From positions 1 through 39,341 of the forward strand of contig JAFUOR010000090.1 of the NCBI GenBank assembly GCA_017481825.1: 39,341 bases of DNA, in the 5' to 3' direction. The translations under genes and the position numbers were made by a program. Position 1 is the stretch's first letter. Each line of letters begins with the position of its first letter. Source of the DNA: Clostridia bacterium (GTDB taxonomy: Bacteria; Bacillota; Clostridia; Christensenellales; Aristaeellaceae). The notes below the pieces were generated by a model. It did no database searches and was not told the origin of the DNA. It was given only the letters and a program-made list of their open reading frames with translations. This document shows positions 1 through 14,328 of the stretch, piece by piece.

Positions 1-35
1 CTCCTGTCCAGATGCGCAGCCTCCTCGGCGCCGCC

Positions 36-80
36 GCGAAGTGAAGCCGCTCGGGCTACGCCCTCCCGCCTTCACTTCGC
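36..80. repeat. Inverted repeat in the gap upstream of the pilus operon
   Basis: An 11-bp arm (GCGAAGTGAAG, 36-46) is perfectly inverted at 70-80, with a 23-nt loop. The flanks (1-120) are GC-rich and C-tract-rich, like the intergenic repeats elsewhere in the window. No gene is visible in 1-311 on either strand. The hairpin may end a gene to the left of the window or be part of a dispersed repeat; the sequence does not decide. Confidence 0.5.
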
Positions 81-237
81 CCTCCCTTCCCCTTGCTCTT
101 TCGTTCTTTTTCTTGGTCTCACATCATTGACTAATGAACAATGCGGCAAAAAGAGCGGTGGGAAAGTGCGGATGATAAATAACTTCTGTTTGGCAAAATA
201 TGATGCTGAAAGTAACGAATTTTACACGCTTTTGCTA

Positions 238-266
238 TTGCAAAAAATGGGAAACAGAAGTACAAT
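238..266 (+). promoter_or_regulatory. Sigma-A-type promoter of the pilus operon
   Basis: TTGCAA (238-243) and TACAAT (261-266) are separated by exactly 17 nt in a locally AT-rich stretch (170-300) that contrasts with the GC-rich flanks. The predicted transcription start is near 273, giving a leader of about 40 nt that contains a strong ribosome binding site (AAAGGAGGG) just before the ATG at 312. No other convincing promoter was seen before 12522, so this one probably drives all eight genes. Confidence 0.6.
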
Positions 267-311
267 GATAAATGTAGAATTGTATGATTTTGCCGAAAGG
301 AGGGAGTTTGC

Positions 312-1460
312 ATGCAAAGGGACTGGCGCAGACAACTGAAGATGATTATCGTGCTGGTGGCATGGCTGCTGCCTCTTGTGTGCGTGCCTATCGGCGTGTC
401 GCTGCTGACGGCCCAGGCGCAGGAGATTACTACGCCCAGTGACCTGGCGACGGAAGCTCTCACCACGGCACCCACGGCCACACCTGCGCCGACCAAGACC
501 CCCAGCAAGCGTGCCGGTTATGCGCTGCTCAAGGGTGGATCGACGGTCTGGAAGAGCCGCCAGCGAACGTCCTCCTTGGGCAAGACCAACGGGGATGCGT
601 ATGTGTGGATCGTCAACACCTCCGTGGCGTCCCTGACCTACAAGATCATGTTCGATACCGAATTGTCCACTGCTCTGGAGGAGTGCCATACGGCCTATGT
701 CCTTTCGGCGGATGTAGTTTGGCTTTCCGATGCGGCGAATGAACAGCTGGCGGCGGAGCTGGCAAAGGATGAAGTCCGCCAAGCCGGCGGCACCTGGATT
801 CCGGTGATTTCCTTCAACTACCGCAATCCGCCCGCCACGCCCCAGGTGACGGCGACTCCCACACCGGCGCCATCCACGACGTCTGTCCCGACGCAGGAGC
901 CCGATCTGACCACCGGTACCGATCTGGTAACGCCTGCGCCGACCCGCGAACCTGACCTTACCACAAGCACCGATCTGGCGACGGCAGCGCCAACGGCCAC
1001 GCCTGCGCTCACCGCCATCCCCACTGTCGAACCGACGCTGGTGCCTCCGATGATCATCGCGACGCCCGTGCCGGATATCACCACCGGCACGGACCTGCCG
1101 GGAGACGTTGCCACCGGCACTGATCTGCCGGGCAATCTCACAACCGGTACCGATTTGCCAGCCCTCACGGCTGCCGAAATGAAAGCCATCCTTGACCAGA
1201 CCCATCCAGACCGTGTGCTGACCATCAGCACTACCTGCTCCATGGCCGATTACCGTGTGGGCAGCATGCTGACGATGTGGGCCGAGATCACGGGCTACGA
1301 CGGTCTTGACTACCAGGTCATCTGGGAAGTGAACCGCGGCGACGGCTGGTGCAACGCCGGGGCGGACGGACAGATGAGCCTGTCCTTCACCATCACGGAG
1401 GAAAACCAGTACTGGAACTGGCGTGCCGGTGTGAAGCTCACCGAAATCCCCGCGCCCTAA
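312..1460 (+). CDS. Secreted Thr/Pro-rich surface protein, first gene of the pilus operon
   Basis: 382 residues. An N-terminal hydrophobic segment (about residues 10-35) ends in AQAQ and reads as a signal peptide. The middle (about 175-295) is a low-complexity Thr/Pro/Ala linker with a repeated TTGTDL or TGTDLPG motif; related TTPSDL and TTSTDL variants also occur. The C-terminal ~80 residues look like a small Ig-like beta domain, with spaced Trp and Tyr residues. There is no C-terminal sorting motif or membrane anchor, so the product should be released or held by another protein. The start is fixed by AAAGGAGGG seven bases upstream. The stop is 9 nt before the adhesin gene. I do not recognise a named family; a role as a soluble pilus-associated factor is inferred from position only. 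Confidence 0.8.
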   Translation: MQRDWRRQLKMIIVLVAWLLPLVCVPIGVSLLTAQAQEITTPSDLATEALTTAPTATPAPTKTPSKRAGYALLKGGSTVWKSRQRTSSLGKTNGDAYVWIVNTSVASLTYKIMFDTELSTALEECHTAYVLSADVVWLSDAANEQLAAELAKDEVRQAGGTWIPVISFNYRNPPATPQVTATPTPAPSTTSVPTQEPDLTTGTDLVTPAPTREPDLTTSTDLATAAPTATPALTAIPTVEPTLVPPMIIATPVPDITTGTDLPGDVATGTDLPGNLTTGTDLPALTAAEMKAILDQTHPDRVLTISTTCSMADYRVGSMLTMWAEITGYDGLDYQVIWEVNRGDGWCNAGADGQMSLSFTITEENQYWNWRAGVKLTEIPAP

Positions 1461-1469
1461 GGAGTCGAT

Positions 1470-4400
1470 ATGCACACATTCGCCAAGCGGATCATCGCGC
1501 TCACACTGGCTCTGCTGATGCTGGCCGGTGTGTTTGCCGCGCTTGCGGATGAGCTGGTGGAGTACAGCGGCGGGGTGTCGGTATGGGCGATGCGAGTCAA
1601 TGGCGATTACGCCGTGACCCTGCAGGTGGAGAACCTGGATGGGTCGATTGCCCAGTCAGTGACCGTTGGAGTCAATGCCGGCGCAACGCTCAACGCTACA
1701 GATTATGAGGCCTTCAATAGCTGGTACACCTGGTATGACGAGGCGGGCAATGTGGTCGACCTGTCGACGCAGACCTATACCGCAGATACCGTGTTGACGG
1801 CAAGGGCGACATATGATGCAGCTCCCTACGCCAACCTGTATGTCTGTATTGACGGAACCTGGAGTAAGTTAGAGACTGCAAACCGTCTTTATCACACCTA
1901 TGACGCTTCGTCGCAGCGTTGGCTGATTACCGCAGCGCAGCTGGCAGCATGTTATCAGACTTATGGCTTCTTGCCCGATGTGTATAATGCAACCAGTCTG
2001 TATAAGTTTGCATATTGCAGTGTAGGTGCAACCGGTGTGTACGCGGACACTACCCCGGTAGAGTACTTTGGTGCGTATGCACTTCCGCTAAGTACGCGCG
2101 GCTGGATAGACCAATATGACATATACTATCTGCCCAACAACTCGTCACGGATTGATGGGGCAGGAATTAGCAGCTACGCAGGTGCCAACACCTTCTACAC
2201 CATTACTGTCAACGCCTATGACAAGGCGGCGGAGGTGGTGAGGGGGACAACCTACAGCGACAACGTCCTCACCGGTGCAGACAAGCCGGTTGTTCTGGCT
2301 GGCGAAACTCTGACCATCACGGTTCCTGCTTTTGATGGCCGTGAATGGACATGTACCAACGGCACAAGCACCATCACGGGCACGACGGCAAACGGCTTTA
2401 CGACCTTTAGCATCAGCAGTGTTTCCGCTGCCACGACGCTGGAACTGAGCCATCCGACAGTAGCTCCGGGTGCGCAGATCAATTTCCAGGTGTACCTTGA
2501 TGATCAATGGAAAACGGTCAGCCAATCCAGCAACCTGTATGGGCCATACAATGACCGCTATATGGTGGCGGTGGACGAGCTGATCGATGTGTTTGACAGC
2601 TACGGCCTCTCAACGGATGCTGATGCGGTGATGAGCAACAATCCCTTTGCATACAGCGACCCGGACAAGGATCAAATGTGGCGGGATACAGCTTATACGA
2701 TTTATTACAGCGAATCAATGCTGCCACTGAGTGGAAAAACTGCCGTCAATGTTTACTATCTGCCCAACCAAACAGGAAGTGGTGTGTATCTGACGGAAAT
2801 CGGCCCTCCCAACGCCTTCTACACCCTGACCCTCCATGAGGCCGCCACGGGGCTGAGTGCATCCTACATCCTGCCCAGGGATACGAACCTCACCACCTGG
2901 TGGAATGGCACGGCTCCGGACACGCTGCCCGGCTGGGTGTATGAATTTTCCGAGTATGACTGGTATCAGGGCAGTGCCGATGGCGACACGTGGTCGTGGG
3001 AAGCTGGCAGAACGATTGGCGAGAAGCTCGACCTCTATGCGGTCATGCCCACCTACACGGTTACTCTGCGCCAGGATGCGGCAGACGGTGAGAAGTTGGC
3101 CAGCGTCAGCGGCGTGGTCAAGCATACTTCGCTGGCGGACTGGCTGGAGGCGAATGATGGCCTTGCGCTGTCCAATAACAAGACGGTGCATGACTACAAC
3201 TGGATGTGGCTGGATGAAGACAACCACGTGGAAATTGGCACAACCCAAATCACGGGCGACGTAACCCTCGTGGGTACGCTCAAGCCCAGATACACGGTCA
3301 CATTCCTGGCAGTGAAGGACGGCGAAACGGGCGGCAGCTTCACCGATAGCACGATCCCGACCAGCATCATCGTGCTGGAGGGCGATACGGTGCCGGAGCT
3401 CTTCATCGCCCAGATGCGCGATAACATCACGCTGGCAGAGGGCTTTGCTTTCAGGCAATGGCTTTTTGAGGGCGATCAGGTCGCTTCCGGTTCCATGACC
3501 TTCACCGAGAAGACGTCTGTTCAGTCACACTTGACCGTCTGGGGTGAATACACCACGGAGGTCACCGTCAATTTCTATGCGGACAGTGCGAAGACCCAGG
3601 CGGACGTGCTGAAAAATTATAATCAGAAGTATCCTGTCGGCGCGAAGCTGACAGACGATCAGTACCCCACGGAAGACGAGATTATGAGCGTGGCGCCTGC
3701 CGCCGACATGCGTTTCCGCTACTGGGTGAACATCAACACGGGCAAGGTTTTTACCCCGGACAGCGAACCTGTGATGACAGACCTTGAGCTCTACCCGGTG
3801 TTCGAGCGCTCCATTTTCCGCTTCATGGACAAAGAAAGTGGACAGCAGCTGACGATCCTCTACGACGATGATCAGTTGAAATACGACGCACCCAAGGTGG
3901 ACGGCCAGTACTACGCAGGCCTTCTGGTGGAGGATGAGGACGGGAATTCCATCCTGATCCCCAACGGCACGGCGGTGAGTGAGACGTTCTTTGCCGACAA
4001 TGGAGTAAATATTCCTGCCTCCGTCGATGGCTACTATGATGTGGAGGCTACCCCGGTGTACAAGCCGCTGCGCTATGTGACCTACCACGCGGGCGATACC
4101 GGCGCGTTCATCATCACCACCGGCGATACCTACACGGTGCCGGTGGAGGAGGAGGTCACCCTGCTGGGCGCTCTGGATATTGCCAATACTGCCAGCTCAA
4201 TTGGTCTGGCGCTGGCAGGCTGGACAACCGATCCGGACGGCACCACTGCGGAGTATGCGCCCCATGAGACAATCACCAACGCAGATGGCAAGCTGGACGC
4301 CTTGGTGGAAGCCTCGGAAACTGTCCATTTGTACCCCGTGTGGGAGCAGCAGGACAATACGGTGGCGGTCAGGTTTGAGTCCAACTACCCCGACGACGCA

Positions 4401-6761
4401 ACGGACGAGAAAGGTAACGCCCTGGCCGAAAAGGCCTACATCATCTACATCAGATCCGGAACGAAGCCCACCATGCCGACGCTGGAGCGTGTCCAGATAA
4501 CCGAGCCGGTCAATAAGACCAGCGAAAATGATGCGCGGTATGTGCTGGCTGGATGGTCGATCACGAAAAATGAACATGTGGCTTCAGGCTCTTTGGAGAG
4601 CGATGGAACCTATATCCCGGGCAGCCAGTACGTCAATTCGCTGACTACGGACACGATCTTCTATGCCAAGTGGGTTGATCAGGAGCCGACAGCAACGACG
4701 ACATACGGCGCGGAGTTCTTCATCCGTGGTGACGGCACACTGCCCACAGAGCCCAAGGAGCATGCAGACACAAGCGCTTACTATGCCATCGGTGGTCATG
4801 AGGAGATTGGTGGTTATATTTACAAAAGGATCAATATTGCCAACGACGTGAGCAAGGTTGAGGCCAACATCAAGACTGAGCCGATGCCGGAGACTATCAT
4901 TCAAAAGCTGAAAGAAGGGGGATATTCCCGCAGCGCCGAGCTTGAGACGCTGGGTGCGGCAGGCTACGGCACGACCTGGTGGGTGGACTGGTACGCCTGC
5001 AAAGATGCGGGCTGTACTTACTACCACATTGATGGCCGTATCCGATTTGCCACCCAGGTGGAACTGAACTACCACTCCAACGGCGGCAGTACCAATGTGC
5101 CTGATGGCGAGGTCGCCAACAAGGGCGAAACGCTGAATGTTGTCTTTGAAAAAGTGCAGATGCCCAGCCGTGACAACTTCACCTTCCTTGGGTGGGACCC
5201 GAATGCCAATGCGACCTATCCGAGCTATCCTGTGGATGGTTCAGGATTAACAAGCATTGAGATGAATAAGGACGAGGACCTCTACGCCATCTGGTCTGCC
5301 AACGCCATTGCCATCCCCATGAATGATGATTTCAAGGGCATGAAGTACGAGCAGACCAACAGTGAAGCGCAGAAGGCGCCGGAAAACACGTACAGCTTCA
5401 CCATCGAAGCCACGGAAGTGCCCGCAGGCGCCATGCCCTATGGCCCGATCACGAAAACCAACAACGCTGCCGGCAGCTTCACCTTTGATCAGATCATGGT
5501 GCAGGTGCCCGGCACATACGTGTTCGAGGTGCGCGAGGTGGCCGGAAGTCTGCCCGTTCAGTATGACACGTCAGTATACGAGCTGTCCATCCGCATCGAT
5601 GAAACGGACTATGGTCTGGGCATCGCCGGATACTCCTTCATGAAGAACGGCAAGGTTCTTTCAGTGACGACCAGCAGCGTCGATGATGTTGTGTTTGAGT
5701 TTGTCAACCGCACCGACGTCCGTGATATCACGGTCACGAAGGAATGGGCGGACAATGAGGATCAGGATGGCCTGAGGCCCTCGTCGGTCGAGGTGGAATT
5801 GTACCGTGACGATACAATGATGGAAAAGCAGACGCTGACAGCGGCGAATGGCTGGACCCATACGTGGGAGGATTTGGACATCCGCGATGGTGACAGCTCC
5901 GCGCAGTATCAGTACACCGTCAAGGAAGTCGCAACGCCCAACGGCTATACCAGCGAGATCACCGGCGATATGAACAGCGGCTACACCATCACCAATACCC
6001 ACACGCCCCAGACGGCGGATTTCTCCGTTGTCAAAACGTGGGAGGATGCCAATAACATCGATGGATACCGCCCGACGGAGCTGACCTATACCATCGAAGG
6101 CACAACGCTCGCCGGTGTTGCGGCGGTCAAGCAGACGAAGACCGTGAACGAGCCGTTCAGTTGGACCTTCGAGGATCTGCCGCGCTTCTACAAGGGCGAG
6201 CCCGTGACCTATACGCTCACGGAGAGTGCTGTGGACGGGTATTCAACGGCGATTCTGGAATCGGGGGCGCACTCGGATGGCGGCAAAACCTTCTACGTAA
6301 CCAACACGGCGGAGGTTGCCACGGTGACTGTGACCAAGCAGGTGGAGGGCAATGCGGCAGACCCGGCGAAGGAATTCACCTTCACCGCAATGGTCTACGA
6401 TGCGGCAGGCGCACAGGTGACAAGCCTGAAGGTGCCGGACGGTGCGCTGTACACAGCCGGTACGGACGGCACCATTTCCTTCAAGCTGGCGGCGGGGCAG
6501 TCCATCGATCTGCAATGGCTGCCCATCGGCGGCACCATCCAGCTTGCGGAAGAAAACGGCCCCTACACCCTCACCTGGTCGGATTCGACGGATGGCCGCT
6601 ATGCGATCACCGCCGGTCTGGACGTGGTTGCAACCAATGCCCTGAGCGCCAGCGTCCCCACGGGCGTGGTGCTGGATCGCTGGCCTTACCTCATCCTGCT
6701 GGGCGTGAGCCTGGTGGGCCTGCTGGTCTGGCCTGCATGGAAGAAACGGAGGAATGCCTGA
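1470..6761 (+). CDS. Giant multidomain adhesin / ancillary pilin with VPTGV sorting signal
   Basis: 1763 residues. A signal peptide covers about 1-25. Two tandem divergent copies of a module containing YYLPN and FYT follow (about 115-255 and 337-460). Several InlB-type B repeats run from about 530 to 1277, recognisable by FLGW, LAGW and LYPVW motifs. An FctA-like isopeptide domain (about 1279-1415) is followed by two Cna B-type domains (about 1417-1510 and 1515-1614, with TVTKEW and TNT ends) and a third pilin-like domain (1616-1728). VPTGV at 1729-1733, a hydrophobic helix and KKRRNA form a sorting signal. VPTG rather than LPxTG matches the signals used by streptococcal class B pilus sortases. 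Its place just upstream of the SipA-like gene corresponds to that of Cpa, so it is probably the tip adhesin. The start has AAGGAG nearby. Confidence 0.9.
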   Translation: MHTFAKRIIALTLALLMLAGVFAALADELVEYSGGVSVWAMRVNGDYAVTLQVENLDGSIAQSVTVGVNAGATLNATDYEAFNSWYTWYDEAGNVVDLSTQTYTADTVLTARATYDAAPYANLYVCIDGTWSKLETANRLYHTYDASSQRWLITAAQLAACYQTYGFLPDVYNATSLYKFAYCSVGATGVYADTTPVEYFGAYALPLSTRGWIDQYDIYYLPNNSSRIDGAGISSYAGANTFYTITVNAYDKAAEVVRGTTYSDNVLTGADKPVVLAGETLTITVPAFDGREWTCTNGTSTITGTTANGFTTFSISSVSAATTLELSHPTVAPGAQINFQVYLDDQWKTVSQSSNLYGPYNDRYMVAVDELIDVFDSYGLSTDADAVMSNNPFAYSDPDKDQMWRDTAYTIYYSESMLPLSGKTAVNVYYLPNQTGSGVYLTEIGPPNAFYTLTLHEAATGLSASYILPRDTNLTTWWNGTAPDTLPGWVYEFSEYDWYQGSADGDTWSWEAGRTIGEKLDLYAVMPTYTVTLRQDAADGEKLASVSGVVKHTSLADWLEANDGLALSNNKTVHDYNWMWLDEDNHVEIGTTQITGDVTLVGTLKPRYTVTFLAVKDGETGGSFTDSTIPTSIIVLEGDTVPELFIAQMRDNITLAEGFAFRQWLFEGDQVASGSMTFTEKTSVQSHLTVWGEYTTEVTVNFYADSAKTQADVLKNYNQKYPVGAKLTDDQYPTEDEIMSVAPAADMRFRYWVNINTGKVFTPDSEPVMTDLELYPVFERSIFRFMDKESGQQLTILYDDDQLKYDAPKVDGQYYAGLLVEDEDGNSILIPNGTAVSETFFADNGVNIPASVDGYYDVEATPVYKPLRYVTYHAGDTGAFIITTGDTYTVPVEEEVTLLGALDIANTASSIGLALAGWTTDPDGTTAEYAPHETITNADGKLDALVEASETVHLYPVWEQQDNTVAVRFESNYPDDATDEKGNALAEKAYIIYIRSGTKPTMPTLERVQITEPVNKTSENDARYVLAGWSITKNEHVASGSLESDGTYIPGSQYVNSLTTDTIFYAKWVDQEPTATTTYGAEFFIRGDGTLPTEPKEHADTSAYYAIGGHEEIGGYIYKRINIANDVSKVEANIKTEPMPETIIQKLKEGGYSRSAELETLGAAGYGTTWWVDWYACKDAGCTYYHIDGRIRFATQVELNYHSNGGSTNVPDGEVANKGETLNVVFEKVQMPSRDNFTFLGWDPNANATYPSYPVDGSGLTSIEMNKDEDLYAIWSANAIAIPMNDDFKGMKYEQTNSEAQKAPENTYSFTIEATEVPAGAMPYGPITKTNNAAGSFTFDQIMVQVPGTYVFEVREVAGSLPVQYDTSVYELSIRIDETDYGLGIAGYSFMKNGKVLSVTTSSVDDVVFEFVNRTDVRDITVTKEWADNEDQDGLRPSSVEVELYRDDTMMEKQTLTAANGWTHTWEDLDIRDGDSSAQYQYTVKEVATPNGYTSEITGDMNSGYTITNTHTPQTADFSVVKTWEDANNIDGYRPTELTYTIEGTTLAGVAAVKQTKTVNEPFSWTFEDLPRFYKGEPVTYTLTESAVDGYSTAILESGAHSDGGKTFYVTNTAEVATVTVTKQVEGNAADPAKEFTFTAMVYDAAGAQVTSLKVPDGALYTAGTDGTISFKLAAGQSIDLQWLPIGGTIQLAEENGPYTLTWSDSTDGRYAITAGLDVVATNALSASVPTGVVLDRWPYLILLGVSLVGLLVWPAWKKRRNA

Positions 6762-7087
6762 TGGAGACCATGAATCAGGAGAACCGTCGCCGTCGCCGTA
6801 AGGACAATCCTCCGGCGCAGGTGAATGTGCCCGCGCTGCCGGAGAATCCGTACCAGCAGAAGATTGCCGATTTCCTTGGCAAAATGAAGCTGCGCAAGGT
6901 GACCTTTGGAGGCGTGAGCGAGAAGCAGGTGTGGAAGCGCATCGGAGAGCTGAACGAGATGTACCAGAAGATGCTGGAGGTGGAACGTGCCCGCTACGAG
7001 GTGCTGCTCCACCAGCACGGCATCACCCTGGACCCGCAGACGCCCTATCCCGATGAGGCTCCTGCCGGGGGAGGTGAGAGCTCTTGA
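6761..7087 (+). CDS. Small cytosolic protein of unknown function in the pilus operon
   Basis: 108 residues. The start codon shares one base with the adhesin stop, and GGAGGA lies 7 nt upstream. The N-terminus is very basic (RRRRRK near residue 9), followed by a Pro-rich stretch. A helical region (about 50-85) is rich in charged residues and could form a short coiled coil. There is no signal peptide or membrane helix, so it should stay in the cytoplasm or bind the membrane face through its basic end. It overlaps the next gene by 4 nt, which implies translational coupling with the signal peptidase homologue. I do not recognise the family, and I recall no counterpart in the streptococcal FCT locus. 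Confidence 0.8.
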   Translation: METMNQENRRRRRKDNPPAQVNVPALPENPYQQKIADFLGKMKLRKVTFGGVSEKQVWKRIGELNEMYQKMLEVERARYEVLLHQHGITLDPQTPYPDEAPAGGGESS

Positions 7088-7638
7088 GTCATCCCAAGCC
7101 GCGCAAGAGCGCTGACATTGCGCGCGTCATCAGCCGCCGCCGGGAGCAGGTCGTTACTGCTCAGGAGACATGGGCGCTGGTGCGGCGCGTGCTGCTGCTT
7201 GCCGTCGTGGGCTACCTGCTGCTGACGCAGGTGTTTCTCATCACTCAGGTGGAAGGGCAGGGGATGTTCCCCGCTGTAAAGGATGGCGATCTGGCCATGG
7301 TCTACCGTCTGCAGGGCTCCTACGCCCGCAATGACGTGGTGGCCTACCAGGCGGAGGGCCAGCGGTACTTTGGGCGCATCATCGCCCAGGGCGGCGACGA
7401 GGTGCAAATCGATACCACCGGCACCCTGCTGGTCAACGGACTCATTCAGACGGGCGAAATCCTGTTTCCCACCAACACCCGCGATGGCGAGAGCTATCGT
7501 TACGTGGTGCCGGAGGGCTGCGTCTATGTGCTGGGCGACTACCGCACCCAGACCGTCGACAGCCGCGATTTCGGCGCGATCTCCCTGGACGACGTGGAGG
7601 GCAAGCTGATTACCATCCTGCGCCGCCGGGGCCTGTAA
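7084..7638 (+). CDS. SipA-like signal peptidase I homologue lacking the Ser/Lys dyad
   Basis: 184 residues, starting at a TTG that overlaps the previous stop (TTGA) and is preceded by GGGGGAGGTGAG. One membrane helix (about 34-54) is followed by the type I signal peptidase fold. Box B reads GQGMFP where active enzymes have GxSMxP, so Gly60 replaces the nucleophilic Ser. Box D reads YFGRIIAQGGDEV where active enzymes have YxKRVIGxPGD, so Gly97 replaces the general-base Lys. Box E (VLGDYRTQTVDSRDFG, about 149-164) is intact. Streptococcal SipA, a pilus assembly factor, also lacks both catalytic residues. The same role, as a non-catalytic chaperone for pilin polymerisation, is the best inference. 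Membrane-anchored, facing outwards. Confidence 0.88.
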   Translation: MSHPKPRKSADIARVISRRREQVVTAQETWALVRRVLLLAVVGYLLLTQVFLITQVEGQGMFPAVKDGDLAMVYRLQGSYARNDVVAYQAEGQRYFGRIIAQGGDEVQIDTTGTLLVNGLIQTGEILFPTNTRDGESYRYVVPEGCVYVLGDYRTQTVDSRDFGAISLDDVEGKLITILRRRGL

Positions 7639-7690
7639 GCAAGGATGCATGCCGAAAGGCACGATTGATACAAACAAGGAGGAATAAACC

Positions 7691-8731
7691 ATGAAAAAGT
7701 TTCTGGCCCTGCTGCTGGCAGCGATGATGCTGATGAGCGCTGTGGGTGTGGCGATGGCGGATGGGGAGGATACATCTACTGTTACTTATGATAAGGCGGC
7801 TACTATCGAGAAGATTTACACGGGTGCACTTCCCGTTGGTGATGCGCTGAGCTTTGAAGTGGAGTTTGTGAAGGAAATGGCTACCGGCAGTACGGACGAT
7901 CCTGATCTGCTATCCTTCCCCGATCATACGGTCACAGCTACTGAAGATGGTTCTCTGACGAATAAGCTGACCCTCAATTATCGTGTGCCGGAAGATCTGG
8001 CTCCCGGTGGCTATGTCTATAAGCTGACCGAAGTTAGCGAGAAGAAGTCTGATAACACCGCCAATACCAATGTTACCTTGGATGATAAAGTAGTGTATGT
8101 CATGATTTCCAAGCTGAACGATGGCACTTCCAGCATTGCGGTCTGTGGCAAGCCGACTGAGGAATCTGGCGTACAGACGGCGGCGGACGATCTTACGGAT
8201 GAGACTAAAAAAGACGACTTTACCAACACATACAAGACTGGTGCGGTCGATATTACCAAGGAGTTTAAGGGCAACGCTGCAGTTGTTACAGATACCTTCA
8301 AGGCCACTGTGACCTTCACCACGAAGGAGAACCTTGACAATTTCACGGTGACTGTCACCCCTCCCGGTAAAACCACGGGAACGGAATCCAAGCTGTCCAT
8401 TGATGATGCCGGTAAGGCAGTGCTTGATGTGACGATTGAGAAGGGTACGCTGAACATTACAGGTATTCCCTATGGCGTAACCGTCAATGTCAAGGAAAGC
8501 AGTCAGAGCGGCTTTGAGGACAACATGAATGGCTACACGGATACATACACTGCCGATGTGACGGTTAGTGAAACCAAGCAGACCATCACCGTCACCAACA
8601 CCAAGGATGCCGTCATCCCCACCGGCGTCTACATGGACTACATCCCCTACATCGTGATTCTCGCCGTGGCGGTGATCGGCCTGGTTGCCTTCGTGGCGAA
8701 GCGCCGCATGTCTGCTGACCGCGACGACTGA
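7691..8731 (+). CDS. Major pilin, FctA/Spy0128-like, with IPTGV sorting signal
   Basis: 346 residues. Signal peptide about 1-23 (ends AMADGED). Two Ig-like FctA-type domains follow. The first (about 30-177) ends FTNTYK. The second (about 178-312) opens VDITKEFKGN, contains a VKES motif and ends VTNTKD; these Lys, Glu and Asn positions fit the intramolecular isopeptide bonds of the family. IPTGVYMDY starts the sorting signal, followed by a hydrophobic helix and a KRRMSADRDD tail. A very strong ribosome binding site (AAGGAGG) precedes the ATG. Codons in the middle of the gene end in T or A more often than in its neighbours, while the signal peptide and sorting signal keep the GC-rich style. The likely role is the repeating shaft subunit, polymerised by the sortase encoded downstream. 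Confidence 0.9.
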   Translation: MKKFLALLLAAMMLMSAVGVAMADGEDTSTVTYDKAATIEKIYTGALPVGDALSFEVEFVKEMATGSTDDPDLLSFPDHTVTATEDGSLTNKLTLNYRVPEDLAPGGYVYKLTEVSEKKSDNTANTNVTLDDKVVYVMISKLNDGTSSIAVCGKPTEESGVQTAADDLTDETKKDDFTNTYKTGAVDITKEFKGNAAVVTDTFKATVTFTTKENLDNFTVTVTPPGKTTGTESKLSIDDAGKAVLDVTIEKGTLNITGIPYGVTVNVKESSQSGFEDNMNGYTDTYTADVTVSETKQTITVTNTKDAVIPTGVYMDYIPYIVILAVAVIGLVAFVAKRRMSADRDD

Positions 8732-8744
8732 TTTCTGAATCCAT

Positions 8745-8827
8745 CCCGGGGTCGGGCGAGTGACCCCGGGCATTCTCAGCGACCGGCAGCAGAGGGTCGG
8801 TCGTTGAGACTGCCTCAACCATTTTTT
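8745..8827 (+). terminator. Attenuator-like hairpins between major pilin and sortase genes
   Basis: The 116-nt gap holds three potential stems. The first is CCCGGGGTC (8745-8753) with GACCCCGGG (8762-8770). The second is CTCAGCGACCG (8775-8785) with CGGTCGTTGAG (8798-8808), 11 pairs including one G-U. The third is GTTGAG (8803-8808) with CTCAAC (8814-8819), directly followed by six T (8822-8827). The second and third share 8803-8808 and exclude each other, the geometry of a terminator and anti-terminator. Partial termination here would give more pilin mRNA than sortase mRNA. Confidence 0.5.
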
Positions 8828-8847
8828 ACGAAAGGAGAACAGCCGCC

Positions 8848-9621
8848 ATGCAGCGCAGGATCATTCGGTTCCTCAACAGCATCGTGTCCGCTGTGGTAGC
8901 GGTGGTTCTTGTTTTGATGCTGCTCTATTCGGCCTATGCCCTGTGGGATAATCAGCATGTGTATCTGCTGGCGGATTCCGTGCAGAATGATCTGCTGGCC
9001 TTCAAGCCCCAGGAGGAAGAGGAGGCTGCGCCCTCCTTTGAGGAGCTTCAGGCTATCAACCCCGATGTGAACGCCTGGCTCACCATGGAGGGCACCCACA
9101 TCGACTTCCCCGTTGTGCAGGGCAGCAACAATTTTGAATACCTGAGCCTGGATGTGTACGGGAATTTCTCCCTGGCGGGCAGCATCTATCTGGATTCTCG
9201 CAACAGCCGGACGTATACGGATGCTTACAGCCTCCTGCATGGTCATCATCTTGATCAGGGCCGCATGTTTGGCGATCTTGATCTGTACAAGCAGCGGGAC
9301 TTTTTTGATGCCCACACCACCGGCACGCTCCTGATGCCGGAGGGCCGCTATGCGCTGGATGTGATCGCCTACCTGCTGGTGGATGCGACGGACAGCGTCA
9401 TCTTTGCGCCCCAGCGCTGGACGCAGGATGCGGCGGACGTGCTGGACTTTGCGAAGGAAAAGGCTGTGTTCATCCATGAGGATGCCATGCAGCGCGCGCT
9501 GGGCGTGCCGTCCGATGAGGTCCGGCTGCTGTGCCTGGCAACCTGCTCCACGGAGTACACCGATGCACGGACGATCATCCTGTGTCTGATGACCAGGGCA
9601 GAGCAGGAGGTGTCGCCATGA
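8848..9621 (+). CDS. Class B sortase, pilus polymerase
   Basis: 257 residues. An N-terminal membrane helix (about 8-32) and a short linker are followed by a class B sortase domain (about 65-250). The catalytic triad is visible: His133 in LLHGHH, Cys233 in LATCSTE and Arg241 in DARTIIL. WLTMEGTHIDFPVVQ is the usual class B N-terminal motif. It lies between the IPTG pilin and the LPQTG basal subunit. In streptococcal FCT-3 loci a class B enzyme in the same position (SrtC2) joins QVPTG pilins, so polymerisation of the IPTGV and VPTGV subunits is the likely job. GGAG sits before the ATG. The stop overlaps the next start by 4 nt (ATGA). Confidence 0.92.
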   Translation: MQRRIIRFLNSIVSAVVAVVLVLMLLYSAYALWDNQHVYLLADSVQNDLLAFKPQEEEEAAPSFEELQAINPDVNAWLTMEGTHIDFPVVQGSNNFEYLSLDVYGNFSLAGSIYLDSRNSRTYTDAYSLLHGHHLDQGRMFGDLDLYKQRDFFDAHTTGTLLMPEGRYALDVIAYLLVDATDSVIFAPQRWTQDAADVLDFAKEKAVFIHEDAMQRALGVPSDEVRLLCLATCSTEYTDARTIILCLMTRAEQEVSP

Positions 9622-11351
9622 GCCGAAGAGTGCAGGCCGTTGCAATGGCGGCGATGCTGCTGATGCTTCTGCTCCTGCCCGTGAATGCGTTGGCTGGCAG
9701 CGTGGCTCTCCCGGTGGAGGTACGCGTCAGCGGCGTTCCCACGACGGCGGAAAGCTATACCATCATCCTGACGGCGAAGGATTCGCTTTGTCCCATGCCC
9801 TCCGGCGCGGTGAACGGCGAAATGAGGCTCAGCGTTACCGCCAACAGCACGGCGGCTTTCCCGGTCATTGATTTTACTGTGCCGGGTACCCATGAATATA
9901 CCATCCGCCAGCAGGCGGGGAGCGATCCGTTGGGTGTATACGATGAAACCGTCTATCTGGTGGAGATTTGCGTGGTCAATACCGAGAGCGGCGTGACGCC
10001 CGTGGTGGTGGTATCCGAATCGGTGAACGGCGTGAAGCTGGACGCCATCGTATTCGAGAACTCCTATCTGCCGGTGCCTACGCCCACCCCCACGCCAGGA
10101 CCAACGGTTACCCCGGAGCCTGACGTGACGGTCACCCCTGAACCGGATGTAACCGTGACGCCTGAGCCGGATGTGACGGTGACGCCTGAACCGGATGTAA
10201 CCGTGACCCCGGAGCCCGACGTGACGGTGACGCCCGTGCCTGACGTGACGGTCACGCCTGTGCCGGATGTGACCATCACCCCGCCCCCTTTGACCACCCC
10301 GCCAGTGGTCACGGTGACGCCCGTCCCGGATGTGACGGTCACGCCTGTGCCTGATGTGACGGTCACACCTGCTCCTGCAACGCCCACCGCGTGGCCTCCT
10401 GTGACACCCACACCCGCGCCGACGGTCACGCCGGAGCCTGATGTGACGGTGACCCCGGAGCCCGACGTGACGGTGACGCCTGTGCCGAATGTAACGGTCA
10501 CCCCGGTGCCGGATGTGACCGTCACCCCGCCGCTCGCCACCACAGCGACACCTGAGCCGGACGTGACAGTGACGCCCGTTCCCAATGTGACGGTGACCCC
10601 GGAGCCCGCAACGCCAACGCCCTGGCCCACTCCGGTGCCAACGCCTACCCAGTGGCCGCCTGTGACGGCAACGCCTGCCCCGACGGTGACGCCTGTGCCG
10701 AATGTAACGGTCACGCCTGTGCCGGGTGTAACGGCTACGCCCATTCCCAGTGTGACGGGCACTCCCGAACCTGGAGCCACCACCACGCCCCAGCCAACCG
10801 TGACGCCCGTGCCTGACGTAACGGTAACGCCTGTGCCGCAGGTGACAGTGACGCCTATCCCCGATGTGACGGTCACGCCGGTCCCGGATGTAACGGTCAC
10901 GCCGCCTCCCGCTACGCCGCAGGTGACGGTGACGCCCGTCCCCGATGTGACAGTGACCCCTGTGCCTGATGTGACCGTAACGCCTGCGCCCGAGCAGACA
11001 AGCCCCCCGGTTCCCGATACGACGGCAACGCCCCTGCCGACAGTGACACCTGTCCCTGATGTGACGGTGACGCCTGTCCCTGATGTAACAGTGACGCCCG
11101 CACCTGATGTGACGGTGACGCCTATCCCTGATGTAACAGTGACGCCCGCACCTGATGTGACGGTAACGCCCAACCCGGCGGTCACGGTTACCCCGGAACC
11201 CACCAGGCCTCCGGAACCTGATCCGGATCTGCCGCAGACCGGCGTGGAGGATCATTGGATGTACTACCTGGGCGGCGCGGCGGTGCTGGTGCTGATTGCT
11301 CTGGTGATGCTGCGTATTCTTCTGCGCCCGGAGCGTGATGACGATGAGTAA
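9618..11351 (+). CDS. FctB-like basal pilin with Pro/Thr octad-repeat stalk and LPQTG anchor
   Basis: 577 residues. A signal peptide ends near residue 26 (ALA). An N-terminal pilin-like beta domain (about 28-152) ends in FENSYLP and resembles FctA/FctB domains. A stalk of about 380 residues follows, made almost entirely of the octad TPxPDVTV (x = E, V, A or I); PDVT occurs more than twenty times, with a few irregular inserts containing WPPVT. LPQTGVEDH, a membrane helix and RPERDDDE form a standard cell-wall sorting signal. In streptococcal loci the LPxTG subunit with a Pro-rich tail is FctB, the pilus base that the housekeeping sortase fixes to the wall. The same role fits here. Translationally coupled to the sortase gene upstream. 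Confidence 0.9.
   Translation: MSRRVQAVAMAAMLLMLLLLPVNALAGSVALPVEVRVSGVPTTAESYTIILTAKDSLCPMPSGAVNGEMRLSVTANSTAAFPVIDFTVPGTHEYTIRQQAGSDPLGVYDETVYLVEICVVNTESGVTPVVVVSESVNGVKLDAIVFENSYLPVPTPTPTPGPTVTPEPDVTVTPEPDVTVTPEPDVTVTPEPDVTVTPEPDVTVTPVPDVTVTPVPDVTITPPPLTTPPVVTVTPVPDVTVTPVPDVTVTPAPATPTAWPPVTPTPAPTVTPEPDVTVTPEPDVTVTPVPNVTVTPVPDVTVTPPLATTATPEPDVTVTPVPNVTVTPEPATPTPWPTPVPTPTQWPPVTATPAPTVTPVPNVTVTPVPGVTATPIPSVTGTPEPGATTTPQPTVTPVPDVTVTPVPQVTVTPIPDVTVTPVPDVTVTPPPATPQVTVTPVPDVTVTPVPDVTVTPAPEQTSPPVPDTTATPLPTVTPVPDVTVTPVPDVTVTPAPDVTVTPIPDVTVTPAPDVTVTPNPAVTVTPEPTRPPEPDPDLPQTGVEDHWMYYLGGAAVLVLIALVMLRILLRPERDDDE
10079..11220 (+). repeat. Degenerate 24-bp tandem repeats coding for the stalk
   Basis: The TPxPDVTV octads are encoded by 24-bp units of similar sequence (forms such as GATGTGACGGTGACGCC). 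Many units differ only at third positions and a few are nearly identical neighbours, for example around 11060-11160. Copy number could change by slippage or unequal recombination, which would alter stalk length. Confidence 0.85.
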
Positions 11352-12522
11352 ACGCAAGCGTCTGGCAGCGCTGGTGATGGTGCTCTGCCTGCTGGCAGCA
11401 GCGGCCTTGTGCGTCCTGGCGGTGCGGGAACTTCACGAGCGCCAGGCCAGCGTCAATTATTATGCCAGTCTGATGAGTCAGGTGTATCTGCCGACCATCG
11501 TACCCACACCAGACACACCGACAACTGCCATGCCAACAGAAACGGTGGCTCCGACAGCTACGGCCATTGTTGTGACGGAGACCACATTTGCGGCGACGCT
11601 GTCTGCTGTTCCTGCGACAGAGGCTACACCCACGGCGACGCTGTCTGCTTGTCCTACGGCAGAAGCCACGCTTACGGCGACGCTGTCCGGCACGCCAGAG
11701 CCCAGCGCTGCACCTTCGAGCACAAAAGCTCCCACGGAGTCACCGACATCCACAGTAGCAGTGACGCCAACGAACTCCCCCGCGCCTGTCGTGACGGAGA
11801 CAGCTCCTGCAACCGGCAGCATGCCGCCTGCTCCGATAGCCACGTCCACCGGAACGCTGACGGCTGCATCGCCTGTGCCTGCGGCTTCGCCGACGATCAC
11901 GATGCAACCCACTGCTGTGCCGACAGCCACGCCCACGCAAGCACCGTCGCCTGTGCCGCGTACCTCGCAGCTGGATTTCAAGGCGCTGTCACAGCTCATG
12001 CCGGATATCGTCGGCTGGATCGTCTGTCCGGGGACGAACATCAATTATCCCATCGTGCAGGGCGAGGATAACGATTTCTACCTCAGCCATTTGCCGGATG
12101 GCACGGCCAATGCCTCCGGCTCCATCATGCTGGATGTGGCCAATGCCGGTGATTGGTCGGATCAGCTCAGCATCCTCCACGGGCATTTCATGCGCTCGGG
12201 CGAGATGTTCGGCAGCCTTGATGATTTTGCAGACCCGGCCTACGCTGCCGAGCATGCCGTGATGCAGCTCTATACGCCCCAGGGGGACTACACGGTGGAG
12301 CTGCTGGCGGCCTGCACGGTGGATGGCGCGAAGCTGGGCTACATGCCCAATTTCGAGGACGACGCCTCCTTGGAGCGCTTCCTGGCAAAGCTGACGGGCC
12401 GTTCCGCCTACAAGACGGCCTATGAGTCCACAAGGAACGATCAGCTGCTGCTTCTGTCCACCTGTGCGTATTCCTTTGTCAATGCCCGGTTTATGGTGCT
12501 GGGCAGGCTAATCCCACAATAA
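11344..12522 (+). CDS. Second class B sortase with a long Thr/Pro/Ala-rich stalk
   Basis: 392 residues from the ATG at 11344, which has GGAG 10 nt upstream and overlaps the basal pilin stop by 8 nt; an in-frame ATG at 11338 is too close to that site. A membrane helix (about 8-28) is followed by about 155 residues of Thr/Pro/Ala/Ser-rich low-complexity sequence (about 50-207), then a class B sortase domain (about 210-392). The triad is His281 (LHGHF), Cys374 (LLSTCAYS) and Arg382 (NARFMVLGRL). Class B sortases normally hold the catalytic domain close to the membrane, so the stalk is unusual. Possible roles are wall anchoring of the finished pilus or a second polymerisation step. Last gene of the operon. 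Confidence 0.88.
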   Translation: MSKRKRLAALVMVLCLLAAAALCVLAVRELHERQASVNYYASLMSQVYLPTIVPTPDTPTTAMPTETVAPTATAIVVTETTFAATLSAVPATEATPTATLSACPTAEATLTATLSGTPEPSAAPSSTKAPTESPTSTVAVTPTNSPAPVVTETAPATGSMPPAPIATSTGTLTAASPVPAASPTITMQPTAVPTATPTQAPSPVPRTSQLDFKALSQLMPDIVGWIVCPGTNINYPIVQGEDNDFYLSHLPDGTANASGSIMLDVANAGDWSDQLSILHGHFMRSGEMFGSLDDFADPAYAAEHAVMQLYTPQGDYTVELLAACTVDGAKLGYMPNFEDDASLERFLAKLTGRSAYKTAYESTRNDQLLLLSTCAYSFVNARFMVLGRLIPQ

Positions 12523-12526
12523 GAAC

Positions 12527-12563
12527 AGCTCCCTTGCAGGTTGCGAATTCCTGCAAGGGAGCT
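12527..12563. terminator. Bidirectional terminator between pilus operon and NahK-like gene
   Basis: A perfect 14-bp stem (12527-12540 with 12550-12563) and a 9-nt loop lie between two convergent genes. The T tract on the + side is short (CTTTGG). It probably serves both transcripts. Confidence 0.75.
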
Positions 12564-12578
12564 GCTTTGGTATGCGGA

Positions 12579-13646
12579 TCATTCGGCCAGGATTTCCTGA
12601 ACGATAGCGTTCATTTCATCCCACTTCTGCTCCATGTCCTTCACCAGCCGCAGCTGCGTGCGACAGCGGTCAAGATTGTGGGTGGGACGGCTGATGTGGA
12701 AGTACATGTCGCCGTTCAGATAATCGGTCATGAAGCGTACGGCATTTTCCAGGGTCATGAGCCTCGCACCCCAGGGGAGGGTCTCGATTTCCCTGGCGGT
12801 CAAGCGCTTGCCGCAGGTTGTCAGGAAGCCGCTGGTAAAGGCCTGGTAGCGTTCGATGGACAGGCTGACCTTATCCAGGTCCGTTTCATCCTCAGCGGCT
12901 GTGGAGGCGCCAAACCGGATGGCGTCGCCGAAGTCGTGAGCCACCAGGCCCGGCATTACCGTGTCCAGATCCATTACGCAAAGGGGCGTCTTTGTGGCCG
13001 CGTCCAGCATGACGTTGTTCAACTTGGTATCATTGTGGGTCACTCGCAGGGGGAGCTCACCCGATTGGCACAGCGCCGTCAAGAAGCCTGCTTCATCCTC
13101 ACGGCTCAGCAGCGCATCGATCTCCGGGCCGACCTCGTGCAGGCGTCCTGCGCGGTCTGCACAGATAGCCTCGCGGAGCTGACGGTACCGGTCAGGCGTG
13201 TCATGAAAATGGGGGATGGTTTCATGCAGTGTCTCTGCCGGGAAATCCGCCAGCTGATTCTGGAACATGCCAAAGGCCACGCCGCTCTGGTACAGATCAT
13301 CCGCCGATTCCGGAGCGTCCAGGCAGATGCCGTCCAGCACATAGTCCAGCATGCGCCAAAAGCGCCCATCCTCCCCGGTGATAAAGCTGCGGCCATCCAG
13401 GGTCGGCACGACCGACAGGGAATGCCGCGGATCGTTGTCTTTGCGGCGCAGATGTGCGCACACGGCGGTCAGATTGTCCATCAGGCCGGGAACATCCTTG
13501 AACACATGGCTGTTGATCTCCTGAAGAATGTACAGCCGGGCCCTGTTGGTCACCACCAGAAAAGTATGGTTGATATGCCCGCCTCCAAAGGGGGTGCATG
13601 CGATAGGCAGCCCATCAAGACAGAACTGCTGGTAGAGATGCTTCAT
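12579..13646 (-). CDS. NahK-like sugar kinase, phosphotransferase (APH) fold
   Basis: 355 residues. The ATG at 13646 has GGAGG a few bases upstream. FGGGHINHTF near residue 20 is a nucleotide-binding loop. THNDTKLNNVML is the catalytic (Brenner-type) HxD motif, and CVMDLDTVMPG carries the metal-binding Asp. These forms are closer to N-acetylhexosamine 1-kinase (NahK) and relatives than to drug-modifying aminoglycoside kinases. Phosphorylation of an N-acetylhexosamine or another sugar at C1 is the likely reaction, in the cytoplasm. No phosphorylase, epimerase or sugar transporter gene lies next to it, so the substrate cannot be set from context. It is transcribed alone. Confidence 0.75.
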   Translation of the reverse strand: MKHLYQQFCLDGLPIACTPFGGGHINHTFLVVTNRARLYILQEINSHVFKDVPGLMDNLTAVCAHLRRKDNDPRHSLSVVPTLDGRSFITGEDGRFWRMLDYVLDGICLDAPESADDLYQSGVAFGMFQNQLADFPAETLHETIPHFHDTPDRYRQLREAICADRAGRLHEVGPEIDALLSREDEAGFLTALCQSGELPLRVTHNDTKLNNVMLDAATKTPLCVMDLDTVMPGLVAHDFGDAIRFGASTAAEDETDLDKVSLSIERYQAFTSGFLTTCGKRLTAREIETLPWGARLMTLENAVRFMTDYLNGDMYFHISRPTHNLDRCRTQLRLVKDMEQKWDEMNAIVQEILAE

Positions 13647-13677
13647 GAAATGACCTCCATGATACAGTGCTATGTTT

Positions 13678-13706
13678 ATGATAGCATGAACGCAGCACTG
13701 CGTCAA
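13678..13706 (-). promoter_or_regulatory. Promoter of the NahK-like kinase gene
   Basis: On the minus strand, TTGACG (13706-13701) and TATCAT (13683-13678) are 17 nt apart. This places the transcription start near 13671, about 25 nt before the start codon. Confidence 0.5.
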
Positions 13707-13909
13707 TCGGGTGTCCAGGTGCGCTGCCCTCCAACCGGCAGGGAAGCTGTCCCTGCACCCTGCCAAAGGGTCTTCGCTCCAACATGCTTGTCGCTTAACT
13801 CCCCTCTGGAAAGGAGTTCCGGTGCGATGTCCTCTGGACTCCTTTTTCGCGATCTTGGTTGCGCGCGCGTGGTTATCGGGGAACGAAATCTGCATGCGCT
13901 TTGGTGATC

Positions 13910-14118
13910 GTGCCTTGGCGCGACTCCCCTGCGGTCGGCTCGCGGCGCCCGCTGCCTGATCGTACCTTTGCGGCAGAGAGAGGTGGCCTCCTCCTGCGGA
14001 GGGGTGCGGGGATTGGTGGGCACCAAAAGCCTTCCTGCCTCTAACCTTCCCCTCTGGAGAAGGTGGCAGTTTGCTTGCGGACTGACGTCTGAGGCCTCCC
14101 GCGTCCTCAGACGCGCCC
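13910..14118 (+). repeat. Dispersed intergenic repeat, copy A
   Basis: Shares an ordered series of words with 19111-19320 (inverted) and 32345-32550. They are a CGACTCCCC/CGGTCG block, GTACCTTTG, AGAGGTGGCCTCCTCCTGCGGAGGGG, GTGGGCACC followed by GCCTTCC, AACCTTCCCC with an AAGG complement, and CAGACGCG near the end. It includes the stem CGTCTGAGG / CCTCAGACG (14086-14113). No reading frame with protein-like content is present. The rest of the gap 13707-14328 also holds a weak terminator-like stem (13812-13843, followed by five T). Confidence 0.6.
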
Positions 14119-14328
14119 CCGACATCAAATACAAAGCCCTCAAAGGATCGTCTCCTTTTAGGCGCAACGTCCATAAAAGCAACTTGTCATATAGTCAACA
14201 TGTACATAAAAAGGGGTCGAAATTCGCCGATTAGCCTCTTGCTTTTTTCCTGCCGGAGGAGTAACGTATCGGGTGGGAAAAGGAACATAAGGACCGGCGT
14301 GAACCACCGATCCGGGGAGGTAAATGCC

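What the first reader, a model, noticed from the sequence alone, without database searches (positions are those of the whole stretch)
312..12522. FCT-3-type pilus operon order with three extra genes
The order Cpa-like adhesin (VPTGV), SipA-like protein, FctA-like pilin (IPTGV), class B sortase and FctB-like LPQTG subunit is that of the Streptococcus pyogenes FCT-3/4 pilus loci. Here it appears in a probable Clostridia genome with three additions: a secreted Thr/Pro-rich protein at the front, a 108-residue cytosolic protein before the SipA-like gene, and a stalked second class B sortase at the end. The extras are tightly spaced or overlapping and so are likely to be functional parts.
Basis: partly seen in the sequence, partly recalled or inferred. 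Interest (0 to 1): 0.72.

Follow-up and report, generated by a model that had tools for sequence, protein, structure and literature searches.

The report
Pilus operon with SipA partner protein
This is a conserved eight-gene operon for building hair-like surface fibres in gut Clostridia; one of its three supposed extra genes turns out to be a near-constant but undescribed cell-interior companion of SipA, an assembly protein whose role has long been a puzzle.

Summary
The eight genes are as described: g1 Thr/Pro-rich, g2 Cpa-like, g3 108 aa, g4 SipA-like, g5 pilin, g6 class B sortase, g7 FctB-like, g8 second class B sortase. It is an FCT-3-type class B sortase pilus operon, a layout already known in Clostridium.

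The "extras" differ. g3 is near-core: of 47 non-redundant loci found through g3 itself, SipA follows in 43, and the other four contigs end first. g3 occurs in Clostridia, Erysipelotrichaceae and Actinomycetota.

SipA next to g3 carries a cytosolic tail (IIxxRRxxxxxRxGYxSL) with one arginine in 47 of 47 g3 loci, against 2 of 21 without g3. g3 was lost twice inside this SipA clade (three genomes); the tail motif is gone in all three.

g8 goes with a membrane-anchored basal pilin: 10 of 10 loci, 0 of 9 with an unanchored one; probably the anchoring sortase. g1 was found only in the own family.

Best model: g3 is a cytosolic adaptor docking on SipA's tail, as GpsB docks on arginine tails of cell-wall enzymes. 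DivIVA/GpsB homology is suggestive, unproved.

The parts
312..1460 (+). g1: secreted Thr/Pro-rich protein, 382 aa, with a conserved C-terminal domain
   Evidence: ORF; no Pfam hit for the window copy; SH3_3 and PKD hits in two relatives, both just under the Pfam cut-off; C-terminal domain profile found only in own-family loci
1470..6761 (+). g2: Cpa-like tip adhesin, 1763 aa, CnaB domains, VPTGV sorting signal
   Evidence: PF05738 125.7 bits
6761..7087 (+). g3: 108-aa cytosolic protein, proposed SipA adaptor; conserved core about residues 30-88
   Evidence: 14 of 150 family genomes including the own one; 43 loci in named records; SipA follows in 43 of 47 loci found through g3, contig ends in the other 4
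7084..7638 (+). g4: SipA-like inactive signal peptidase, 184 aa; cytosolic tail about residues 1-36 with conserved Arg19 (codon 7138-7140)
7691..8731 (+). g5: FctA-like major pilin, 346 aa, IPTGV; predicted isopeptide triads K41/E114/N179 and K190/E269/N303, candidate acceptor K173
   Evidence: all seven residues 18 of 18 in aligned own-family pilins
8848..9621 (+). g6: class B sortase SrtB1, proposed pilus polymerase
   Evidence: TIGR03064 167.2 bits
9618..11351 (+). g7: FctB-like basal pilin, 577 aa from ATG 9618, FctA/isopeptide-type domain, long VTPxPDVT stalk, LPQTG anchor
   Evidence: PF12892 30.8 bits, TIGR03786 38.6 bits, both run on the longer 9531 start; 24-bp repeat arrays
11338..12522 (+). 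g8: second class B sortase SrtB2 with Thr/Pro-rich stalk, proposed dedicated anchoring sortase (GTG 11335 also possible)
   Evidence: TIGR03064 151.5 bits, just under the cut-off; co-occurrence with anchored basal pilin
12527..12563 (.). perfect 14-bp inverted repeat, 9-base loop, right after the g8 stop: probable operon end
   Evidence: read by eye; not in the list, which allows loops of 3-8 only

Best explanation
The operon builds a covalent pilus of the FCT-3 kind. g2 is the tip, g5 the shaft polymerised by g6 through its IPTGV signal onto Lys173, and g7 the base. g8 then ties g7 to the wall, a job done by the housekeeping sortase SrtA in S. pyogenes. g4 is a catalytically dead signal peptidase that organises pilin and sortase at the membrane. 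g3 is its dedicated cytosolic partner: a small adaptor that docks on the arginine tail (IIxxRRxxxxxRxGYxSL) of g4 just inside the membrane and clusters g4, probably at one assembly site, in the way GpsB docks on arginine-bearing cytosolic tails of penicillin-binding proteins. Shown here by sequence comparison: the gene order, the replaced catalytic residues, conserved isopeptide residues, g3-SipA linkage, the tail motif and its loss with g3, and the g8-anchored-base link. Inferred: direct g3-SipA binding, clustering or septal placement, which sortase does what.
For: g3 was found in 43 loci by a scan that used only its own C-terminal peptide. Of 52 non-redundant loci SipA follows in 48; five of the 52 were found through SipA, so the unbiased count is 43 of 47, the other 4 contigs ending within 386 bases. 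Two of those four still show the tail motif before the contig end (L032, L065). Tail: a profile trained on 13 own-family loci gives 2.1-35.9 bits in 29 g3 loci outside the training set (27 at 12.6 or more) and -4.3 to 3.8 in 17 SipA without g3; Arg at one position 47 of 47 against 2 of 21. Natural losses: G289, and the sister genomes G054 and G851, have SipA of the g3 clade, no g3 at the locus and no tail motif. SrtB2: 10 of 10 loci with membrane-anchored FctB, 0 of 9 with unanchored FctB. The second pilus locus of the same genome also has a stalked sortase right after its basal pilin. GpsB precedent: an arginine conserved in membrane-near cytosolic tails is what GpsB binds (PMC6335420, passages).
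Against: No binding or localisation data. The g3 losses are only two independent events, and a basic tail could be a plain membrane or topology signal. Two Blautia g3 loci score only 2.1 and 3.1 with the tail profile, within the range of g3-less ones (highest 3.8; 4.0). The clade of all g3 SipA is starred in the first tree (96/92) but only 88/74 when G851 and others are added. One g3-less SipA unrelated to the clade (L167) also has Arg at the position. The GpsB pocket residues (Tyr25, Asp31, Asp35) correspond to Val, Trp and a variable position in g3. Homology to DivIVA is weak: hhalign p 0.02-0.044, and 52 of 200 block-shuffled alignments score as high. The type-A and type-B loci are related by descent, so 10 against 9 is not 19 independent cases.
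Confidence: 0.6

Rival explanations
1. g3 is a cytosolic helper of another step (a pilin export chaperone, or a regulator of pilus expression) and the SipA tail is a plain positively charged retention or topology signal that happens to be conserved in this clade.
For: A positively charged tail next to the membrane is known to matter for sortase foci in Enterococcus faecalis (Kline 2009, seen only as a reference title, content recalled). Several g3-less SipA tails are also basic, though lysine-rich and unpatterned to the eye.
Against: The patterned tail is lost each time g3 is lost while the ectodomain stays alike. g3 lies directly before SipA in all loci with sequence left. In G587 the SipA copy that overlaps a long g3-like gene has a tail that looks similar (EDVLKKRFHQLRRK), though it scores only 1.2 with the tail profile, and the second SipA copy does not (-4.1).
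Confidence: 0.22
2. g3 is a true, divergent member of the DivIVA/GpsB family (DivIVA-like domain plus short coiled coil) recruited to pili, placing assembly at septum or poles.
For: Same register F-x-R/K-...-F-G-G-V-[SD]-E-x-D-V as DivIVA F...FRGYDxxEV. A 244-aa g3-like protein in G587 has DivIVA as top Pfam hit (E 0.016, 15.6 bits, under the cut-off of 28) and scores 11.4 bits with a DivIVA profile, against at most 9.3 and 8.5 among plain and heptad-preserving shuffles (1,000 made of each, 999 scored). One of 14 g3 members hits MAG0865_DivIVA at E 0.14, but five unrelated families gave lower chance-level E-values in that call.
Against: The motif tyrosine and last aspartate are Val and Trp in g3; hhalign is not significant against block shuffles; no structure could be predicted.
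Confidence: 0.35
3. Ordinary: a known FCT-3/VR-10B-type pilus locus with lineage-specific hitchhiking genes; g3 and the SipA tail are correlated by descent only.
For: All g3 SipA fall in one clade, so most of the co-occurrence may be one event. FCT-3-type loci without g3 exist in the same family and genus (G148, G089).
Against: Two independent losses with tail loss each time; conservation of g3 and tail from Clostridia to Erysipelotrichaceae and Actinomycetota.
Confidence: 0.15
4. g8 is not the anchoring sortase but a second polymerase or a tip-incorporating enzyme.
For: In loci of other families the basal pilin mostly has an anchor signal with no g8-like gene among the genes shown, so another sortase can do the anchoring there.
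Against: g8 directly follows the basal pilin and is absent from all 9 loci whose basal pilin has no membrane anchor although tip, pilin and SrtB1 are kept. Of the five sortase hits in the own genome, none lists a class A family in NCBIfam: one is class C, one unclassified, and g8 and two others have class B as best match, under its cut-off.
Confidence: 0.25

Closest known systems
Streptococcus pyogenes FCT-3/FCT-4 pilus (Cpa, SipA/LepA, FctA, SrtC2, FctB)
   Same: Dead signal peptidase, class B polymerising sortase, three pilins, PTG-type sorting signals, pilin linkage Lys at an equivalent number (K173) (review PMC7900414, passages); the gene order itself is recalled, as the figure is not held
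   Different: The passages name no g3, no g1 and no second class B sortase; FctB is anchored by SrtA. The S. pyogenes DNA itself was not compared here
Clostridium perfringens VR-10B pilus (CnaA, signal peptidase, FimA, SrtB1, FimB)
   Same: Same set of proteins in a Clostridium, pilus fibres seen by gold labelling, a sortase B2 also mentioned (in the opposite orientation), base pilin with a sortase-B-type signal (PMC8088525, passages)
   Different: The passages list no g3-like or g1-like gene; its sequence was not compared here
GpsB, cytosolic adaptor of penicillin-binding proteins
   Same: Small cytosolic protein acting on membrane-near arginine tails of extracytoplasmic enzymes (PMC6335420, passages)
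   Different: Pocket residues not conserved in g3; the proposed client is an inactive signal peptidase of a pilus operon, not a wall synthase; homology unproved
DivIVA-like domain proteins (DivIVA, GpsB, FilP, Scy, PolyDIV)
   Same: Loop-then-helix motif with G, an N-cap S/D and V in the same register (PMC9858780, passages)
   Different: Y and last D of RGYDxxEVD are V and W in g3; the published survey pattern GY[DN]xx[QE]V[DN] would not have found it

Membership tests
FCT-3-type class B sortase pilus locus | Order adhesin - SipA - pilin - class B sortase - basal pilin | tested here: met
   (with g3 between adhesin and SipA)
FCT-3-type class B sortase pilus locus | Two-domain pilin with Lys/Glu/Asn isopeptide triads and an acceptor Lys | tested here: met
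   K41/E114/N179, K190/E269/N303 and K173 in 18 of 18 pilins, by residue conservation only; bond formation itself not testable, and the roles of the residues are inferred
FCT-3-type class B sortase pilus locus | High-molecular-weight covalent pilin polymer on the cell | not testable with these tools
   needs immunoblot or electron microscopy
FCT-3-type class B sortase pilus locus | RofA/Nra-type regulator beside the locus | not tested
   the window starts 311 bases upstream of g1; upstream genes of relatives were not classified
SipA/LepA pilus protein | Signal peptidase fold with Ser and Lys replaced | tested here: met
   Gly60 and Gly97 in the window copy; no Lys at the second site in 15 of 15 rows of A2, a Ser at the first site in 2 of 15 (L024, L059); nearest solved structure 4n31 SipA
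SipA/LepA pilus protein | Required for pilus polymerisation | not testable with these tools
   needs a deletion
Class B sortase | g6: TIGR03064 score over 153.75 | tested here: met
   167.2 bits
Class B sortase | g8: TIGR03064 score over 153.75 | tested here: inconclusive
   151.5 bits, just below the cut-off; catalytic motifs HGHF, STC, NARF present by eye; a more distant relative (L069) reaches 163.9
DivIVA-like domain | RGYDxxEVD motif | tested here: not met
   G 44 of 44, S or D 37 of 44, D 34 of 44, V 33 of 44 kept, but Y is V (41 of 44) and last D is W (40 of 44)
DivIVA-like domain | Profile score over the Pfam cut-off | tested here: not met
   DivIVA not among the families matched by 14 g3 members; long relative 15.6 bits, cut-off 28
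DivIVA-like domain | Fold: short helix, loop, parallel coiled-coil dimer | not testable with these tools
   structure prediction switched off
GpsB adaptor | Arginine pocket Tyr25/Asp31/Asp35 | tested here: not met
   in the register: Val52, Trp58, variable position 62; the GpsB numbering onto DivIVA is from recalled sequence
GpsB adaptor | Client protein with conserved arginine in a membrane-near cytosolic tail | tested here: met
   SipA Arg19 equivalent 47 of 47; that g3 binds it is not shown

The most novel reading that the evidence does not exclude
g3 is a DivIVA/GpsB-derived cytosolic adaptor that evolved (or was captured) to serve a sortase pilus. It reads a conserved arginine in the cytosolic tail of the dead signal peptidase SipA and so ties pilus assembly to a chosen membrane site such as the septum. 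SipA would then be a transmembrane link between an inside scaffold and the outside pilin machinery, rather than an enzyme.
Probability: 0.3. Interest if true: 0.8.

Novelty: new variant of a known kind. Interest (0 to 1): 0.62.

Why it matters
Why class B sortase pili need SipA, a signal peptidase that cannot cut, is an open question (PMC4049620 and PMC7900414, passages read): pull-downs with recombinant SipA found no partner among pilin and sortase, and the crystal construct lacks the membrane helix. The present comparison points to a side of SipA that those experiments left out, the cytosolic tail, and names a candidate partner with a precise contact residue. It is testable in cultured commensals that carry the genes (Blautia luti, Extibacter muris). 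If true it would link a cytosolic positioning protein to sortase pilus assembly; eight searches of an open-access library listed no paper whose title or abstract start describes one, with capped lists (20 of 1,490; 15 of 97; 12 of 20).

Tried and rejected
DivIVA homology of g3 by profile comparison: weak, kept as a lead only. Solved-structure search with the g3 profile and with the long g3-like protein: only chance hits. Pfam and NCBIfam on g3 members: only chance-level hits (one of them, Beta-lactamase2 at E 0.0005 in two members, was not followed up). Promoter scan: 6 found against 5.4 expected, so no claim. Idea that the g8 stalk is a conserved device: rejected, since several relatives have short stalks. 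Idea that g3 is found with every SipA: rejected, many SipA loci lack it. Search for more g3-less members of the clade in the families of G289 (3 genomes), G587 (10) and G419 (13) gave no further cases.

Rows dropped or oddly counted. Three rows of an early g3 alignment (L032, L054, L058) were mis-extracted and dropped before the controls and the column counts. In one search several upstream stretches were mis-cut (window, L068, L075, L077); one search repeats that test with the cut corrected. L143 (contig begins inside SipA) was among the 18 g3-less rows without a score and was dropped. L069 was dropped from the tail counts because its SipA is cut short and runs in frame into the pilin; its tail has the motif, and one search counts it as followed by SipA. 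L171_a and L171_b lie near a long g3-like gene but were counted as g3-less; L171_b is one of the two g3-less rows with the arginine, L167 the other. G044 and G138 were left out because their contigs end inside the basal pilin. Five long-branched rows were left out of the second tree.
Full report
What is there. The eight ORFs stand as reported, tightly packed with overlapping stops and starts at g2/g3 and g3/g4 and at g6/g7 and g7/g8. A perfect 14-bp inverted repeat lies 4 bases after the g8 stop, so the operon probably ends there. g2 has CnaB domains (125.7 bits), g7 an FctA-type domain, g6 and g8 are class B sortases, g8 just under the family cut-off. g4 is nearer to S. pyogenes SipA than to any true signal peptidase of known structure and lacks Ser and Lys. 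In 18 aligned pilins of the family the two Lys/Glu/Asn triads expected for intramolecular isopeptide bonds and one further Lys (173) are all kept, 18 of 18; the review names K173 of FctA as the FCT-3 linkage residue (PMC7900414, passages).

Relatives. The window lies in a 3.16-Mb draft genome of 163 contigs. In 308 genomes of its family 35 have a SipA-like match at E 1e-33 or better; 21 of these score over 200 bits. g3 was read in 19 of the 21, the exceptions being G054 and G851, and also in G049, whose SipA is fused and scores 152 bits. Of the 18 own-genus genomes listed, the own one included, 3 have the g3-type locus, 2 a g3-less SipA locus and 13 no SipA match at that threshold. Two layouts exist in the family. 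Type A (window, G017, G129, G047, G071, G879, G975, G935, G932, and G049 with a fused gene) has a basal pilin with a membrane anchor and SrtB2: 10 of 10. Type B (G103, G073, G118, G038, G006, G870, G898, G054, G851) has an unanchored basal pilin and no SrtB2: 9 of 9. In G935 and G932 the contig ends inside the SrtB2 stalk, so only the N-terminal part is matched.

The three extras. g1: its C-terminal domain profile is seen before the adhesin only in own-family loci, in none of the 29 other non-duplicate loci shown (many of these are cut before the adhesin start; two of the 29, L038 and L067, are themselves own-family loci that are cut). In the family it was not found beside the adhesin in G047 and G138. 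g8: see type A; more distant SrtB2-like genes follow SrtB1 and the basal pilin in L048, L068 and L069 (193-230 bits) and in G587 (182 bits). g3: a scan of the 84,980-species collection with one peptide pattern of g3 returned 43 loci, in Clostridia, in Erysipelotrichaceae (a Holdemanella MAG) and in Actinomycetota (Parafannyhessea and two MAGs); 11 of the 43 are the same loci as. With the family loci there are 52 non-redundant g3 loci; SipA follows on the same strand in 48, and in the other 4 no more than 386 bases remain. Five of the 52 (L185-L188, L190) were found through SipA, so the unbiased count is 43 of 47.

The SipA tail. Reading SipA upstream of its membrane helix shows a patterned cytosolic tail in g3 loci. 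A profile from 13 family loci scored 29 g3 loci outside that training set at 2.1-35.9 bits (27 at 12.6 or more; the two Blautia loci 2.1 and 3.1) and 17 g3-less SipA at -4.3 to 3.8. One arginine (Arg19 in the window) is present in 47 of 47 g3 loci and 2 of 21 g3-less ones; one of the two is the SipA that overlaps a long g3-like gene in G587, the other is L167. On a tree of SipA outer domains all g3 loci fall in one clade, starred at 96/92 in the first tree and 88/74 in the second, which adds G851 and eight other loci and leaves out six rows. Inside it g3 is missing in G289 and in the sister pair G054 and G851 (97/83); all three also lack the tail motif, and no g3-like frame scores better than E 0.3 at these loci. 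G289 and G054 had no g3 elsewhere in the genome either; G851 was not searched for g3 genome-wide. Both trees need at least three changes of the g3 label; starred branches alone force three in the first and two in the second. SipA outside the clade, including those of same-genus genomes G148 and G089, have neither g3 nor the motif.

What g3 may be. By its sequence g3 has no signal peptide or membrane helix. Gly51, Glu75, Arg76, Arg78 and Leu82 are invariant in 44 of 44. Its loop FGGV[SD]ExDVW lines up with the RGYDxxEVD loop of DivIVA and GpsB (PMC9858780, passages), but statistics are weak (3 of 200 column shuffles and 52 of 200 block shuffles reach the score). A longer relative in G587 has DivIVA as best Pfam family, under the cut-off, and beats the 999 scored shuffles of each of two kinds. 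The own genome has a separate DivIVA match (37.6 bits). So I claim that g3 works like an adaptor of SipA (confidence 0.6) and leave open whether it is a DivIVA relative (about 0.35).

g8. The second pilus locus of the same genome (contig C137: CnaB-like giant protein with LPETGG, SpaH-type pilin, class C sortase, basal pilin IPQTGQ) ends in a Thr/Pro-stalked sortase that fits no NCBIfam class at cut-off. The pairing 'basal pilin then own sortase' thus occurs twice with unlike sortases, which fits dedicated anchoring. No NCBIfam class A match was listed for the sortases tested, though the draft is about 91% complete.

Known and new. The core layout is that of FCT-3 (PMC7900414, passages; gene order recalled) and of the C. 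perfringens VR-10B pilus (PMC8088525, passages), so the observation itself is a new member of a known kind. New, as far as these searches go, are g3 as a near-core gene, the g3-linked SipA tail, and the g8-anchor link. Eight literature searches of an open-access library listed nothing on these by title or abstract start; three of the lists were capped, and subscription papers are not covered. The remark on E. faecalis sortase tails is recalled, and only the reference title was seen.

Noticed in passing
L020, L021, L025, L027, L029, L189, L191, L172, L192 (type-B loci): Basal pilins without a membrane anchor end in a shared tag, mostly INxGDCLE or similar: G[DE]C near the end in 8 of 9, GDYFE in L192. 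In L029, L172 and L192 the polymerising sortase ends in the same kind of tag (AGECLE, AGECFE, AGDCFD). This may be an unknown C-terminal attachment signal; an oligopeptide-binding protein (SBP_bac_5) follows in the two loci tested.
   Followed up: partly
L033 (contig C137 of the window's genome), about 1-15200: Second pilus locus: giant surface protein with LPETGG, SpaH-type pilin, class C sortase, basal pilin IPQTGQ, and a Thr/Pro-stalked sortase that fits no NCBIfam class at cut-off.
   Followed up: partly
L035 1751-9281 and L034 113-1159 (contigs C81 and C128): Two further sortases in the same genome whose best match is class B but under the cut-off (121.0 and 132.3 bits), the first right after a 2154-aa VPETGD protein.
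   Followed up: no
L030 8658-9872 (same gene as in L071): In Candidatus Excrementavichristensenella the N-terminal part of SipA runs in frame into the C-terminal part of FctB, and pilin and SrtB1 are missing between them; natural deletion or assembly fault, not resolved.
   Followed up: partly
L069 about 10240-10990: SipA is cut short after its membrane helix and runs in frame into the pilin; the tail motif is intact. A second case like L030.
   Followed up: no
L171 (G587), reverse strand 6702-15955: Locus with two SipA copies: a 244-aa DivIVA-like g3 relative overlaps the first, then adhesin, second SipA, pilin, SrtB1, FctB, SrtB2.
   Followed up: partly
L020, L021, L027 upstream of SipA: The conserved SipA tail is in frame but has no ATG, GTG or TTG before it, which suggests an unusual start codon.
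   Followed up: no
window 10104-11188: g7 stalk is a 24-bp repeat array (VTPxPDVT); g7 is 577 aa against 210-245 aa in seven type-A relatives and 614 aa (longest frame) in same-genus G932.
   Followed up: partly
window 27044-29875 and 38212-39297: A 943-aa and a 361-aa ORF with no Pfam match at 1e-5; not examined further.
   Followed up: no
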